Assembly: GCF_019038465.1 (NCBI RefSeq) | Contig: NZ_JAFKRH010000040.1 | Location: 1-64,000 of the forward strand | Source: Synechococcus sp. CCY 0621 | GTDB lineage: Bacteria; Cyanobacteriota; Cyanobacteriia; PCC-6307; Cyanobiaceae | Reading direction: 5' to 3' | DNA: 64,000 nucleotides | In this document: positions 36,884-54,310 of the stretch, one piece after another | Layout: each line of letters opens with the position of its first letter | Position numbering within the stretch: the stretch's first letter is position 1 | Position numbers and translations under genes: made by a program | The notes under the pieces: model-generated | Told to the model about the DNA's origin: nothing | Database searches by the model: none | The model's input: the letters and a program-made list of their open reading frames with translations, nothing else

Positions 36884-37900
36884 TCAGCAGATCCTCGGCA
36901 GCAGTTCCCCGCTGAGGGGAACCAGCACCCGCTCGCTGCCGTAGGGGGTGCGCAGCAGCACCCGGCCCCGGGGGGGGCCAGCGGCCACGAGGCCGATCCA
37001 GGCTCCCCCTGCGGGTCCCAGCACCTCCAGGGCTCGCTGCCGATCGGCCTCGGGCACCACCGCCAGGAAGCGTCCCTCGTTGGCCAGGTGCAGTGGATCG
37101 AAGCCCAGCAGCTCACAGGTGCGGCGCACCGGCTCCGCCACCGGCAGGCACGCTTCCTTGATCTGCAGCTCCAGAGCGTTGGGGGCCGCCAGTTCCTGCA
37201 GGGCGCTGGCCAGCCCGCCCCGGGTGAGATCCCGCAGGCAGTGGAGCCGCACCCCGGCGGCCAGCAGCGCCTCCACCGCCGGCCACAGGGGCATGCAGTC
37301 GCTGGCCAGGGGGGGCTGCAGATCCAGGCCATGGCGGGCGGCCAGGATCGCCACCCCGTGGCGGCCCAGGTCGCCGCTCACCAGCAGCTGGTCGCCGGGG
37401 GCGATCGCCAGCGGATCGATCGGATCGTCCACCTGCAGCAGGCCGATGCCGCTGGTGTTGAGGAAGGCCCCGTCCCCCTTGCCCCGCTCCACCACCTTGG
37501 TGTCGCCGGTGACGATGGTCACCCCGCAGTGCCGGGCCGCCTCCACCATCGAGCTGACGATGCGGCGCAGCACGGCCAGCTCCAGTCCCTCCTCCAGGAT
37601 CAGGCCCAGGCTCAGCACCAAAGGCCTCGCACCCGCCATGGCCAGGTCGTTGGCAGTGCCCGTCACCGCCAGGCTGCCGATGTCGCCGCCCTCGAATTCC
37701 AGGGGCTGCACCACGTAGCTGTCGGTGGTGAAGGCGAGCCGGCCGTGGGGCAGGGACAGGCGGGCGGCATCGTGCAGCACCTGGTCGGGGTCGGCGTAGA
37801 GACGGCGCAGCTCGGCGTCGATCAGCTGCTGCATCAGGGTGCCGCCACCGCCGTGGGCCAGCTGGATGCGGGCGGTGACGGGCGGGGCCGGCTCAGCCAC
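36884..37900 (-). CDS. hypE: Hydrogenase maturation protein HypE
   Basis: 338 residues. RIQLAHGGGGTLMQQLI at the N-terminus and TGDTKVVERGKGDG are typical, and the C-terminus ends GELLPRIC, where the last Cys receives carbamoyl and is converted to thiocyanate for the Fe-CN ligands of the [NiFe] site. The GTG start at 37900 overlaps the hypD stop by 8 bp (GTGGCTGA). The longest open frame runs 60 codons further inside hypD but lacks family residues. It is the last gene of the minus-strand hyp block. Confidence 0.95.
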   Translation of the reverse strand: MAEPAPPVTARIQLAHGGGGTLMQQLIDAELRRLYADPDQVLHDAARLSLPHGRLAFTTDSYVVQPLEFEGGDIGSLAVTGTANDLAMAGARPLVLSLGLILEEGLELAVLRRIVSSMVEAARHCGVTIVTGDTKVVERGKGDGAFLNTSGIGLLQVDDPIDPLAIAPGDQLLVSGDLGRHGVAILAARHGLDLQPPLASDCMPLWPAVEALLAAGVRLHCLRDLTRGGLASALQELAAPNALELQIKEACLPVAEPVRRTCELLGFDPLHLANEGRFLAVVPEADRQRALEVLGPAGGAWIGLVAAGPPRGRVLLRTPYGSERVLVPLSGELLPRIC

Positions 37901-39011
37901 GGCGGCCGTAACGGTGGTAGGCGGCGCAGGCACCCTCCGAGGACACCATCGGTGCCCCCAGCGGATGCTCCGGGGTGCAGGTGCTCCCGAAGGCCGGGCA
38001 GTCCATGGGGCGAGCCCGCCCCTGCAGGATGGCGCCGCTGATGCAGACCCCCGCCGGTTCCGGAGCGGCCGCCCGCCCACCGGGCAGGTCGGGGAAGCGG
38101 GCCCCGGCCTCCAGGCGGCGGAAGGGCACCCTCAGCCCCAGGCCGCCCCCCGGGATGACGCCGAAGCCCCGCCAGGGCCGATCCACAGGCTCAAACACCG
38201 ATTCCAACAGGCCACGGGCGGCCGGGTTGCCCTGCTGGCGCACCACGCGGCCGTAAGCATTCGCCACCCGGGCCTCGCCCCGCTCCAGCAGGCGCACACA
38301 GGCCACCAGGCCCCGCATCAGATCCAGGGGCTCGAAGCCGCTCACCACCACCGGCACCCCGTGCCGATCCGCCAGCTGCTCCAGCTCCGTGGTGCCCATC
38401 ACCGCGCACACATGCCCCGCCGCCAGGAACCCCTGCACCTGGTTGCCCTCGGCCGCCAGGATCGCCGCCATGGCGGGGGGCACGCGCACATGGGCCGCCA
38501 GCAGGGAGAGGTTGGCCGCCCCGGCGGCCATCGCCTGGCGCACCAGCAGGGCCGTGGCCGGGGCCGTGGTCTCGAAGCCCACCGCCAGGAACACCACCTG
38601 CCGGTCCGGGTGGCGCCGGGCCAGGGCCAGGGCCTCCAACGGGGAGGTGAGCAGGCGCACGTCGCCCCCTTCGGCCCGTACCCCCAGCAGATCCCCCGGC
38701 CCGCCATCGGCGGCACTGCCCGGCACCCGCAGCATGTCGCCGTAGGAGCAGAGGATCACCTCCGGCCGGCGGGCCAGGCTGCGGGCCGCATCGATGGTGG
38801 CGGCGGGGGTGACGCAGACCGGGCAACCGGGGCCGTGGATCAGCCGCAACCCGGGGGGGAGCAACTGGTCGAGCCCCCAGCGCACGATGGCGTGGGTCTG
38901 GCCGCCGCACACCTCCATCAGGGTCCAGGGGCGGGTGGTGATCGCGGCCAGTTCCTGGGCCAGCTCCCGCACGGCGGCCACCTCCGCCGTCGCCGCCAGA
39001 GGAGCACTCAC
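37893..39011 (-). CDS. hypD: Hydrogenase maturation protein HypD
   Basis: 372 residues. MEVCGGQTHAI, HGPGCPVCVTP, VGFETTAPATA and NAYGRVVRQQGN are HypD landmarks, and the C-terminal part (DCPAFGSTCTPEHPLGAP, SSEGACAAYHRY) holds the [4Fe-4S] and redox Cys. HypD with HypC builds the Fe(CN)2CO unit. Start: GTG 39011, overlapping the flavoprotein stop (GTGA 39008-39011). The longer frame to 39167 would lie wholly inside the upstream gene and is Arg-rich, so it is rejected. Confidence 0.95.
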   Translation of the reverse strand: MSAPLAATAEVAAVRELAQELAAITTRPWTLMEVCGGQTHAIVRWGLDQLLPPGLRLIHGPGCPVCVTPAATIDAARSLARRPEVILCSYGDMLRVPGSAADGGPGDLLGVRAEGGDVRLLTSPLEALALARRHPDRQVVFLAVGFETTAPATALLVRQAMAAGAANLSLLAAHVRVPPAMAAILAAEGNQVQGFLAAGHVCAVMGTTELEQLADRHGVPVVVSGFEPLDLMRGLVACVRLLERGEARVANAYGRVVRQQGNPAARGLLESVFEPVDRPWRGFGVIPGGGLGLRVPFRRLEAGARFPDLPGGRAAAPEPAGVCISGAILQGRARPMDCPAFGSTCTPEHPLGAPMVSSEGACAAYHRYGRRG

Positions 39012-40042
39012 CAGGGACCGGGCGCCGCCGCGGCCTCGGCGGGCAGGAAGGTCTGGACGGCGCGCATGTACTGGGAGCGCTCGTACTCGCTGGGATCGGG
39101 GCAGCGCTGCTGGCTCATGCAGCCGATCAGTTCCCGGGCGGTGGCGTGCTCGTGCTCGAGCAGCCACTGGCTGAGCTCCTCCTCCAGGCCCGTGAGCCGG
39201 CCGGGGCCGTGGCGCAGCAGGGCGGCCACCACCTGGGTGATGGCGGCACCGGCCATCAGCAGGCGCACCACGTCGGTGCCGCGATGCACGCCGCCGGTGG
39301 CCGCCAGATCCACCGGGTGGCGGCCGTGCAGCAGGGCGATCCAGCGCAGGGGCAGCCGCAGGTCGTGGGGGGTGGACAGCAGCAGGTTGGGCCGCACCTC
39401 CAGTTCCTCGATGTCGATATCGGGCTGGTAGAAGCGGTTGAACAGCACCAGGCCATCGGCACCGACGGCGGCCAGCCGTTTGGCCATGGACCCGAAGTTG
39501 GTGAAGAAGGGGCTGAGCTTCACCGCCAGGGGCAGCGACACCTCAGCGCGCACCTCGGCGACGATTTCCAGCACCTGGTTCTCGATCGCCGCGCTGGAGA
39601 GGTCGGGGTCAGTGGGGACGGAATAGATGTTCAGCTCCAGGGCGCTGGCGCCGGCCGACTCCATCCGCCGCGCCACCTGCACCCACTGGCCGGGATGGGC
39701 GCCGTTGAGGCTGGCGATCACGGGCACCGACAGCCTGGAGCGGGCCTGCTCCAGGTGGCGCAGGTAGAGGTCGTGGCCCACATGGAAGATCGAGGGCTCG
39801 GGGAAGTAGCTAAGCGCCTCCCCGTAGCTGTCGGCCCCCTGCAGGGTCACCCGGTGCAGCTCCAGCTGGTCGCGCTCGATCTGCTCCTCGAACAACGAAT
39901 GCAACACCACGGCCGCGGCGCCGGCCTCCTCCAGCCGCAGCAGTTTGTCGATGTCCTCGCTGAGGGGCGCCGCGGCCCCCACCACCAGCGGACTGCGCAG
40001 CTCCAGGCCCAGGTAGGTGACAGAAAGATCGGGACGGGTCAT
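39008..40042 (-). CDS. Dihydroorotate-dehydrogenase-like flavoprotein embedded in the hyp cluster
   Basis: 344 residues with an FMN-binding TIM barrel of the DHOD type. SVTYLGLELRSPLVVGAA, PVIASLNGAHPGQWVQ, ALELNIYSVPTDPD, LPLAVKLSPFFTNFG (Lys) and VHRGTDVVRLLMAGA are visible. The C-terminus is a non-barrel segment with IGCMSQQRCPDPSEYERSQYM, and no Fe-S motif. It is coupled to nifJ (ATGA at 40039-40042) and to hypD (GTGA). Such DHOD-like proteins often accompany nifJ in bacteria, but their reaction is not known. A pyrimidine role is unlikely given the context. Confidence 0.85.
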   Translation of the reverse strand: MTRPDLSVTYLGLELRSPLVVGAAAPLSEDIDKLLRLEEAGAAAVVLHSLFEEQIERDQLELHRVTLQGADSYGEALSYFPEPSIFHVGHDLYLRHLEQARSRLSVPVIASLNGAHPGQWVQVARRMESAGASALELNIYSVPTDPDLSSAAIENQVLEIVAEVRAEVSLPLAVKLSPFFTNFGSMAKRLAAVGADGLVLFNRFYQPDIDIEELEVRPNLLLSTPHDLRLPLRWIALLHGRHPVDLAATGGVHRGTDVVRLLMAGAAITQVVAALLRHGPGRLTGLEEELSQWLLEHEHATARELIGCMSQQRCPDPSEYERSQYMRAVQTFLPAEAAAAPGPW

Positions 40043-53713: not shown

Positions 53714-53806
53714 GGGGACCGGTGCGCCTAAGGCCTTGCTAGCCAGGAAATGGCCAGGCGGCCGTTCACTCGCCTCTGGCGATGCAGTCCACCGTGGGGG
53801 GACCCA

Positions 53807-54310
53807 TCAGGTGGTGGTGCGCTGAGGCAGGCCGGCGGCCTCCAGCCGGGCGTCCAGCGCCTCGGGCGGGTCCACGGACAGCCGCGTCATCAGCTCCCCA
53901 TCCACCACCAGCACCGGCGCCTGGCCGCAGGCCCCCAGGCAGCTGACGTGCTGCAGGGCCCAGACACCATCGCCCGCCGCATCGTCGAGGCGCACCCCCA
54001 GCCTCTGCTCGATGCGGGCCGCCACCTGGGCGCCCCCCTTCACGTAGCAGGCGGTACCGAGGCAGACGGCACAGCGATGGGCGGTGGGGGGCTCCAGCCG
54101 GAACAGGTGGTAAAAGCTGGCCACGCCATGGACCCGGCTCAAGGGCAGCCCCATCCCGGTGGCCACCTCCCGCAGGACCTCCGGCGCCAGGTAGCCATGG
54201 AGCTCCTGCACCTGGTGCAGCACCTCAATCAGGGCGTCGGCGCGGGCGCCATGGCGGCGGATCACCTGGGCGATGCGCGGGTCGGTGCTGGCCGGGGCCG
54301 AAGGGGTCAT
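53807..54310 (-). CDS. hoxE: Bidirectional hydrogenase subunit HoxE
   Basis: 167 residues from ATG 54310. HGYLAPEVLREVATGMGLPLSRVHGVASFYHLFRL is split by family convention; shorter landmarks are RVHGVASFYHLF, CLGTACYVKGG and VSCLGACGQAP, the four Cys of a [2Fe-2S] cluster (NuoE type). It couples the hydrogenase to external acceptors such as ferredoxin. It is the first gene of the cluster, so the hox promoter lies in 54311-54447, shared with a divergent small gene. Confidence 0.94.
   Translation of the reverse strand: MTPSAPASTDPRIAQVIRRHGARADALIEVLHQVQELHGYLAPEVLREVATGMGLPLSRVHGVASFYHLFRLEPPTAHRCAVCLGTACYVKGGAQVAARIEQRLGVRLDDAAGDGVWALQHVSCLGACGQAPVLVVDGELMTRLSVDPPEALDARLEAAGLPQRTTT

What the first reader, a model, noticed from the sequence alone, without database searches (positions are those of the whole stretch)
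36884..54310. A 17-kb hydrogenase island: hoxEFUYHW-hypABFCDE with nifJ and a DHOD-like flavoprotein inside the hyp genes
The sequence shows every hox and hyp gene on one strand, with nifJ and the flavoprotein placed between hypC and hypD and joined by 4-bp stop/start overlaps (ATGA at 43635, ATGA at 40039, GTGA at 39008). Family knowledge makes PFOR a ferredoxin reducer and Hox a reversible H2 enzyme that accepts electrons from ferredoxin/flavodoxin as well as NAD(P)H. Inference: the island is a self-contained dark/anoxic electron-disposal module, pyruvate to acetyl-CoA + H2, with the flavoprotein as unknown third component. The strength of coupling suggests that the flavoprotein matters to maturation or to PFOR.
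Basis: partly seen in the sequence, partly recalled or inferred. Interest (0 to 1): 0.85.

Follow-up and report, generated by a model that had tools for sequence, protein, structure and literature searches.

The report
Hydrogen-fermentation gene cluster with PFOR-partner flavoprotein
A small cyanobacterium keeps its reversible hydrogenase, the genes that assemble it and a pyruvate-splitting enzyme in one cluster, a layout already reported in a related strain, and the one odd gene inside is an uncharacterised flavin protein that sits beside this pyruvate enzyme in many bacterial phyla and so is probably its helper rather than part of hydrogenase assembly.

Summary
The island is real. On the minus strand lie hoxEFUYHW-hypA-[outer-membrane-protein gene]-hypBFC-nifJ-DHODL-hypDE, and the three quoted 4-bp overlaps are exact. 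The core claim (nifJ in the hyp cluster, hence fermentative electron disposal through Hox) was published by Barz et al. 2010 for Synechococcus WH 5701. What remains is the flavoprotein (DHODL, NF005741/PRK07565).

Its first partner is PFOR. In 242 cyanobacterial genomes, nifJ lies within 3 kb upstream of 54 of 61 DHODL genes; hypD lies within 4 kb downstream of 20. Of 80 named loci, 74 hold nifJ on the same strand, including all 48 non-cyanobacterial ones. In one family with two NifJ paralogues, DHODL accompanies only one. Hyp linkage recurs outside cyanobacteria (9 of 48); the order hypF-hypC-nifJ-DHODL-hypD occurs in Verrucomicrobiota, Omnitrophota and Chloroflexota.

DHODL keeps the DHOD fold, but the catalytic-base position is unconserved and never Cys in 147 rows; it has its own invariant residues, and the genome has a separate pyrD. 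Best reading: a dedicated FMN partner of the fermentative PFOR, reaction unknown. New member of a known kind; the PFOR-DHODL pairing is worth testing.

The parts
53807..54310 (-). hoxE, diaphorase [2Fe-2S] subunit (start by inspection; the open frame runs to 54385)
   Evidence: NF005747 175.7 bits, under its cut-off of 224, best hit; PF01257
52094..53713 (-). hoxF, NAD(P)H/FMN diaphorase subunit
   Evidence: PF01512, PF10589; NuoF-family model 463.9 bits, cut-off 558.65
51378..52097 (-). hoxU
   Evidence: NF005745 380.5 bits against cut-off 333
50788..51366 (-). hoxY, hydrogenase small subunit
   Evidence: PF01058; CSGC motif
49335..50777 (-). hoxH, [NiFe] large subunit with RICGIC and DPCLSCSTH plus a C-terminal extension
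   Evidence: PF00374; motifs
48901..49338 (-). hoxW, maturation protease
   Evidence: TIGR00072 53.1 against 47.45; no Pfam hit
48567..48908 (-). hypA
   Evidence: TIGR00100 86.4 against 88.1, PF01155 over cut-off
47224..48280 (-). outer-membrane beta-barrel gene inside the cluster, read in two frames (48280-47933, then 47958-47224) because of a one-base shift at a run of six C
   Evidence: PF13505, PF02462; sequence; one open frame in 10 of 10 fetched relatives that have it
46362..47102 (-). hypB
   Evidence: TIGR00073 253.9 against 121.2
43798..46365 (-). hypF
   Evidence: TIGR00143 601.3 against 466.1
43635..43862 (-). hypC (MCLAVPARI start)
   Evidence: TIGR00074 49.3 against 48, PF01455
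40039..43638 (-). nifJ, pyruvate:ferredoxin/flavodoxin oxidoreductase; Fe-S and TPP motifs present
   Evidence: TIGR02176 1662.2 against 911.35; motifs
39008..40042 (-). DHODL, DHOD-like flavoprotein of NF005741/PRK07565
   Evidence: 449.6 bits against 303; AlphaFold model pLDDT 83.4; Foldseek to DPD and class 1 DHODs
37893..39011 (-). hypD
   Evidence: TIGR00075 428.5 against 192.8
36884..37900 (-). hypE, C-terminal Cys kept (LPRIC)
   Evidence: TIGR02124 373.1 against 251.6

Best explanation
The island is a hydrogen-fermentation cluster of known type: HoxEFUYH hydrogenase, its maturation set (HoxW, HypA-F) and the PFOR that feeds it. PFOR splits pyruvate to acetyl-CoA and reduces ferredoxin or flavodoxin; HoxEFU takes those electrons (or NAD(P)H) and HoxYH releases H2; acetyl-CoA is turned into acetate by enzymes coded elsewhere. 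DHODL is a dedicated FMN-binding partner of this PFOR, not a dihydroorotate dehydrogenase and not a maturation factor. I think it most likely docks on PFOR, or accepts its electrons through a small carrier, and passes them through FMN to a substrate of its own, in the manner of dihydropyrimidine dehydrogenase and class 1B DHOD, where a DHOD-fold FMN domain exchanges electrons with Fe-S clusters (recalled). Shown: gene content, order, adjacency, paralogue specificity, predicted fold, unconserved base position. Inferred: FMN binding, contact with PFOR, electron flow. Unknown: the substrate.
For: Adjacency: 54 of 61 DHODL loci in 242 cyanobacterial genomes have nifJ within 3 kb upstream on the same strand, in 20 families. 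Of 80 named loci, 74 hold nifJ on the same strand, including 48 of 48 non-cyanobacterial ones from 8 named phyla and 3 unplaced records. Co-occurrence: DHODL and nifJ together in 56 genomes, DHODL alone in 3, nifJ alone in 4. Paralogue specificity: in family f32 one NifJ clade of 12 rows has none beside DHODL; 7 of the 8 rows of the other do. Context: in 88 loci the other recurrent neighbours within 9 kb include hypF (16 loci, 6 named phyla), hypD (12), hypC and hypE (8 each), hoxW (6), and fermentation-type enzymes: phosphofructokinase (16 loci, cyanobacteria only) and an acetate-CoA ligase (7 loci, same strand); PEP synthase (6) and pyruvate kinase (5) are mostly on the other strand. Active site: the base position (141) is Y 60, S 37, A 20 and nine other residues, never Cys, in 147 rows (131 distinct), and the next column is V, I or L; 33 other columns are invariant, among them S49, E53, N113, E136, Y140, K175, L200-F204 and P207. 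Fold: DPD and class 1 DHODs, TMq 0.62-0.68 in the 50 rows shown. Expression: sll0741 and sll0744 listed under one transcription unit that rises with hox (Table 1 passage).
Against: No physical or biochemical evidence was available here. Co-occurrence counts are not corrected for phylogeny. Three DHODL genomes lack nifJ (G061; G218 and G252, both 87% complete), and G152, G191, G228 and G245 keep the two apart, so contact is not obligatory or DHODL can act alone. E. coli and Lactococcus lactis have nifJ but no DHODL over cut-off (controls), so PFOR does not need DHODL in general. The window's own residue 141 is Ser, the base used by class 2 DHODs (recalled), so this copy alone does not exclude DHOD-type chemistry; the argument rests on the family. 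The 80 named loci are the best 80 of 585 confirmed and so biased to relatives of the query; the 147 rows are mostly from nifJ-linked loci.
Confidence: 0.7

Rival explanations
1. DHODL is a true dihydroorotate dehydrogenase kept for pyrimidine synthesis in anoxia, when the quinone-dependent PyrD is blocked.
For: DHOD fold and conserved FMN-site-like glycines, Lys175 and Asn residues. The window protein has Ser at the base position, as class 2 DHODs do (recalled). sll0744 is annotated 'Dihydroorotate dehydrogenase (fumarate)'. It passes the broad PF01180 cut-off, 59 against 27.
Against: The base position is not conserved: 12 residue types in 147 rows, Ser in 37, Cys in none. Scores are far below the curated cut-offs of the true DHOD models (86.3 against 269; 80.5 against 270). 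The genome has a canonical pyrD (284 bits, NVSSPNTPGL). The family tracks PFOR, and no pyr gene appeared among the recurrent neighbours that were named.
Confidence: 0.1
2. DHODL is a non-catalytic FMN protein that protects or assembles PFOR, for example against oxygen.
For: Tight tracking of one PFOR paralogue. Synechocystis PFOR is reported stable in oxygen in vitro (eLife 2022, PMC8887894, abstract and passages). Catalytic base not conserved.
Against: The pair also occurs in lineages without oxygenic photosynthesis (Omnitrophota, Anaerolineae and others). 33 invariant columns, several expected near the flavin, are more than a scaffold seems to need (inference). Whether DHODL was present in the 2022 PFOR preparations was not checked here.
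Confidence: 0.17
3. DHODL is a hydrogenase-maturation factor.
For: hypD lies within 4 kb downstream in 20 of 61 cyanobacterial loci, and hyp genes lie within 9 kb in 9 of 48 non-cyanobacterial loci.
Against: 41 of 61 loci lack hypD within 4 kb. Five of 59 DHODL genomes lack a hypD hit (G026, G052, G061, G085, G158). 17 of the 73 hoxU genomes have no DHODL. None of the 10 acidobacterial loci shows a hyp gene within 9 kb.
Confidence: 0.05
4. Nothing functional: nifJ-DHODL is an old neighbourhood carried along by inheritance and transfer.
For: Some genomes keep both genes but far apart (G152, G191, G228, G245).
Against: Adjacency in the same order over 20 cyanobacterial families and in 8 other named phyla is not expected without selection.
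Confidence: 0.04

Closest known systems
nifJ in the hyp cluster of Synechococcus sp. WH 5701 (Barz et al. 2010, PMC2974642)
   Same: [quoted passage not shown] Its Table 2 gives HoxH ZP_01085930 and NifJ ZP_01085923 for WH 5701, seven steps apart as in this window if accessions follow gene order (my inference)
   Different: The passages seen do not mention the flavoprotein or the OMP gene, and other phyla are not compared for this linkage
Synechocystis sp. PCC 6803 nifJ operon, TU3296 (sll0741, sll0743, sll0744; PMC11368403)
   Same: nifJ and a DHOD-annotated gene listed under one transcription unit, rising with hox in dark microoxia (Table 1 passage)
   Different: hox forms a separate operon there; the role of sll0744 is not addressed in the passages seen
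Lyngbya hox clusters with PFOR before hoxE (Kothari et al. 2013, PMC3858816)
   Same: PFOR placed beside hox (passages)
   Different: PFOR before hoxE, not inside hyp; 'dihydroorotate' does not occur in the main text
Dihydropyrimidine dehydrogenase / class 1B dihydroorotate dehydrogenase
   Same: Fold: among the best Foldseek matches; electron traffic between Fe-S clusters and FMN (recalled)
   Different: Catalytic-base position not conserved; family-specific LFNRF block and C-terminal tail; no Fe-S domain of its own

Membership tests
Bidirectional Hox [NiFe] hydrogenase (HoxEFUYH; group 3d) | All five subunit genes together | tested here: met
   (HoxE below its curated cut-off but best hit; HoxF, HoxY, HoxH named by Pfam domain and position)
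Bidirectional Hox [NiFe] hydrogenase (HoxEFUYH; group 3d) | Large-subunit metal motifs and a C-terminal extension for HoxW | tested here: met
   [15 protein letters not shown] plus 25 residues
Bidirectional Hox [NiFe] hydrogenase (HoxEFUYH; group 3d) | H2 activity with NAD(P)H or ferredoxin | not testable with these tools
   needs enzyme assay
NifJ-type PFOR (TIGR02176) | Curated score and Fe-S/TPP motifs | tested here: met
   1662.2 against 911.35; CVQCGKCVMVCP, CTGCALCVEVCP, CGGCG, ATGCSS, YSHC
DHOD-like subfamily NF005741 (PRK07565) | Curated score | tested here: met
   449.6 against 303
Dihydroorotate dehydrogenase (PyrD) | Conserved catalytic base, Cys (class 1) or Ser (class 2), after the conserved Asn | tested here: not met
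   for the family: column 141 holds 12 residue types in 147 rows (Y 60, S 37, A 20 first), Cys in none; column 142 only V, I, L. The window protein itself has Ser at 141. Classes and roles recalled
Dihydroorotate dehydrogenase (PyrD) | Score over the curated cut-off of a true DHOD model | tested here: not met
   best 86.3 against 269; it does pass the broad Pfam PF01180 cut-off, 59 against 27
Dihydroorotate dehydrogenase (PyrD) | FMN binding | not testable with these tools
   fold and conserved glycines agree; no ligand data
WH 5701-type hyp cluster with nifJ inside | nifJ between hyp genes on one strand | tested here: met

The most novel reading that the evidence does not exclude
DHODL is the unrecognised partner of a whole branch of NifJ-type PFORs: a PFOR-DHODL complex in which FMN lets pyruvate oxidation drive the reduction of a specific organic substrate, or gates electrons to Hox. 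It would be spread over cyanobacteria and at least eight other phyla, and in several of these lineages be embedded, with the PFOR, in the hydrogenase maturation operon in the same order (hypF-hypC-nifJ-DHODL-hypD).
Probability: 0.35. Interest if true: 0.75.

Novelty: new member of a known kind. Interest (0 to 1): 0.5.

Why it matters
PFOR is a central enzyme of anaerobic carbon metabolism, and its Synechocystis form is reported to be stable in oxygen and needed for optimal photomixotrophic growth. A conserved flavoprotein that follows one PFOR paralogue and recurs across phyla would be a missing component of that enzyme, testable in one model strain (Synechocystis sll0744). It also bears on where the electrons of dark fermentation go, which limits hydrogen yield. 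The island in this window is a dense form of the link: hydrogenase, maturation set, PFOR and flavoprotein together.

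Tried and rejected
Rejected: (1) DHODL as true DHOD (base position, scores, separate pyrD), though the window copy has Ser at the base position. (2) DHODL as maturation factor (more often without hyp than with it). (3) The 4-bp overlaps as evidence of special coupling: mostly not conserved in relatives. (4) The island as a recent mobile element: 21 of 24 same-genus genomes have DHODL over cut-off (the other three, G001, G007 and G019, are 83, 88 and 95% complete). 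Of those 21, 17 were fetched, and all 17 show hypC-nifJ-DHODL-hypD in that order. GC of the island is 0.716 against 0.692 for the window.

Led nowhere: the single-sequence fold (pLDDT 50), replaced by the alignment-based one; promoter and terminator scan (1 promoter-like against 0.8 expected, on the other strand; 4 terminator-like against 4.1); reaching other phyla through the genome search.

Errors of my own: the script took loci in the wrong orientation and its output was discarded; the script stopped with an error and kept only 19 rows; both were redone. The hoxY slice used as a query and later scripts was out of frame, so hoxY rows are to be ignored; hoxY was left out of the order table. 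In some searches I took the sample as 243 genomes; the tools' own count is 242 with the window's genome inside, so 'neither' is 179 and 166, not 180 and 167.

Rows dropped or joined before counting: two nifJ hits below cut-off (G091, G264) were left out; nifJ pieces in one gene were joined (G112, G080, G025, G051, G212, G052:C777); a nifJ end piece below cut-off (G052:C468) was counted as a neighbour; two of the 20 hypD neighbours are fragments below the cut-off (G212:C6, G066:C113). L057, titled Gracilibacteria, was counted as cyanobacterial because its NifJ nests among Oscillatoriales. For the nifJ tree, 8 near-identical same-genus rows were dropped (75 of 83 kept); for that, 62 rows were chosen from all that were held. 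Both are FastTree trees with local support only. The 147 DHODL rows hold repeats (131 distinct).

Literature: Barz 2010, eLife 2024, eLife 2022, Kothari 2013, Puggioni 2016 and PMC10434189 were seen as passages around search terms only (plus starts of abstracts in listings); other papers as search listings only. Puggioni 2016 has no 'nifJ' in its main text. That cross-phylum hyp-nifJ-DHODL linkage is not in print is only as good as searches of an open-access library.

Full report
What is there. The window is part of contig C40 of a 3.23-Mb genome estimated 100% complete. It is a cyanobacterium: HoxU passes its model, the NifJ trees place it with cyanobacterial rows, and one genome of the same class sample has a NifJ identical to that of Acaryochloris sp. 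CRU_2_0. On the minus strand, reading from 54310 down to 36884, lie hoxE, hoxF, hoxU, hoxY, hoxH, hoxW, hypA, an outer-membrane beta-barrel gene, hypB, hypF, hypC, nifJ, a DHOD-like gene (DHODL), hypD and hypE. Metal-site and other motifs are intact: HoxH RICGIC and DPCLSCSTH with a C-terminal extension, HypC starting MCLAVP, HypE ending in Cys, HypD CGGQTHA and GCPVC, NifJ with its Fe-S and TPP motifs (what these motifs do is recalled).

The OMP gene between hypA and hypB is read in two frames here because of a one-base shift at a run of six C. In the 10 fetched relatives that have it, it is one open frame, so the shift is either an assembly error or a mutation of this genome. No match to it was found between hypA and hypB in L139, L141, L143, L144 and L149, so it was probably inserted into, or lost from, an older cluster.

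What is already known. Barz et al. [quoted passage not shown]). In their Table 2 the WH 5701 accessions of HoxH and NifJ are seven numbers apart, which is the distance from hoxH to nifJ in this window with the OMP gene counted; that the numbers follow gene order is my assumption. Kothari et al. 2013 report PFOR before hoxE in Lyngbya. The eLife 2024 paper lists sll0741 (nifJ), sll0743 and sll0744 (DHOD) together in its table of transiently raised genes, with the label TU3296, beside hox. The island and its main interpretation are therefore not new. The flavoprotein is not discussed in the passages seen, and sll0744 occurs in only two papers of the library.

The flavoprotein follows PFOR. In 242 genomes of the class (window genome included), DHODL occurs in 59, nifJ over cut-off in 60, hypD in 74 and hoxU in 73. 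DHODL and nifJ occur together in 56 genomes, DHODL alone in 3, nifJ alone in 4 (the 'neither' count there should read 179). Of 61 DHODL loci, 54 have nifJ within 3 kb upstream on the same strand, in 20 families; 20 have hypD within 4 kb downstream, in 9 families; 16 have both. DHODL and hoxU occur together in 56 genomes, DHODL without hoxU in 3, hoxU without DHODL in 17; hoxU lies within 20 kb of 18 of the 61 DHODL loci. Controls: of 14 well-known genomes, E. coli, Synechococcus elongatus, Bacteroides ihuae and Lactococcus lactis have nifJ, and only Synechococcus elongatus and Bacteroides ihuae have DHODL over cut-off.

It follows one PFOR paralogue. In the tree of 62 NifJ rows, family f32 (Nostocales by my guess, from the named rows) has two clades. 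One, of 12 rows with local support 100, has no row beside DHODL. The other, of 8 rows, is beside it in 7; the eighth (L152, G228) has DHODL on the same contig, not adjacent. Three of the four genomes with nifJ and no DHODL (G140, G166, G214) carry only the first type; the fourth, G221, does not. The DHODL label changes 5 times on the tree, against a mean of 14.3 for shuffled labels, none of 500 as low. That the first clade serves nitrogen fixation is a guess.

It is not confined to cyanobacteria. nifJ lies on the same strand in 74 of 80 and in 48 of the 48 non-cyanobacterial ones; in L050 it is 5 kb away. Of the six without, all cyanobacterial, L064, L069 and L127 are cut by the contig end within 1.5 kb upstream; L062, L063 and L101 have at least 5 kb upstream and no nifJ. 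Hyp genes lie within 9 kb of DHODL, on either strand, in 9 of 48 non-cyanobacterial and 8 of 32 cyanobacterial loci; in three of the 9 (L066, L092, L119) they are on the other strand. If hyp genes fell at random in a 3-Mb genome, the first figure would have a probability near 1e-11 (a crude null). The window's order hypF-hypC-nifJ-DHODL-hypD is found in L067 and L082 (Verrucomicrobiota), L091 (Omnitrophota) and L124 (Chloroflexota, with hoxF, hoxU, hoxH, hoxW in front), and in cyanobacterial L088 with a gap before hypD.

How the block spread is open. In the NifJ tree of 75 rows the 39 rows from other phyla form one group (support 100), and hyp-linked rows are scattered among it and the cyanobacterial rows, 8 changes of state at least (loci cut by contig ends may be miscalled). 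In the HypD tree of 29 rows the six non-cyanobacterial rows also hold together (95/96). That fits either an old block lost piecemeal or repeated transfer of the block.

Neighbours point to fermentation. Within 9 kb of DHODL in 88 loci (the 80 plus 8 fetched relatives), clustering gave nifJ 78, hypF 16, hypD 12, hypC 8, hypE 8, hoxW 6, hypB 5, hypA 4. Others were phosphofructokinase 16 (cyanobacteria only; 15 same strand, at least 11 centred 1.1-1.2 kb downstream), an acetate-CoA ligase of the ADP-forming type 7 (same strand), PEP synthase 6, pyruvate kinase 5, AMP-forming acetate-CoA ligase 4, and a short-chain dehydrogenase 5, a sensor-kinase-like protein 5 and a short unnamed frame 4 that say nothing about fermentation (names from one representative each, some below the model's cut-off; the last two not run against a library). 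This genome has an acetate-CoA-ligase frame on C39 (538.8 bits, cut-off 567.15) and an acetate-kinase-like frame on C15 (250.3, cut-off 293.4), both below the curated cut-off.

What DHODL is. It belongs to NF005741 (449.6 bits, cut-off 303) and fails the models of true DHODs (best 86.3 against 269). The alignment-based model has mean pLDDT 83.4, with a poor stretch at 62-87, and its best solved matches are dihydropyrimidine dehydrogenase and class 1A/1B DHODs, TMq 0.62-0.68 among the 50 shown. In the sequence alignment with class 1B DHOD the catalytic Cys of the SCPN motif falls on residue 141; with class 1A the alignment slips by one, to 142. In 147 rows (131 distinct) column 141 holds 12 residue types, Y 60, S 37 and A 20 first, and no Cys; column 142 holds V 71, I 60, L 16. 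The window copy has Ser at 141. Residues invariant in all 147 rows number 33, among them S49, E53, N113, E136, Y140, K175, L200-F204, P207, G251, G265, and in a C-terminal tail G307, E321, R322, Y325. Strong conservation with an unconserved base position argues for a different substrate or partner rather than decay. The genome's own pyrD on C14 has NVSSPNTPGL.

Verdict. Island real and ordinary in kind; its main reading already published. DHODL is best read as a dedicated partner of the fermentative PFOR. Its reaction is open, and that is the part worth an experiment.

Noticed in passing
window 47224-48280 (-): Outer-membrane beta-barrel gene inside the hyp cluster, with a frameshift at a run of six C; one open frame in the 10 fetched relatives that share it; no match at this spot in five other relatives.
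   Followed up: partly
L150, L151, L153-L160, L162, L163: A second NifJ clade in family f32, none of its 12 rows beside DHODL; role not tested.
   Followed up: partly
L057: A contig titled Candidatus Gracilibacteria whose NifJ nests among Oscillatoriales and which carries hoxE and hoxF; probably mis-binned cyanobacterial DNA.
   Followed up: no
L050:11307-12389 and 15 further cyanobacterial loci: A 6-phosphofructokinase gene near DHODL, in at least 11 of 16 loci directly downstream.
   Followed up: no
L087: In an Elusimicrobia contig the order is nifJ-DHODL-hypF-hypC-hypD-hypE, the pair in front of the hyp genes instead of inside.
   Followed up: no
window 33359-36169 (+) and 54662-56692 (+): Open frames on the opposite strand flank the island: a P-type cation ATPase-like protein and a PAS/GGDEF-like protein, judged by eye from the translations.
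   Followed up: no
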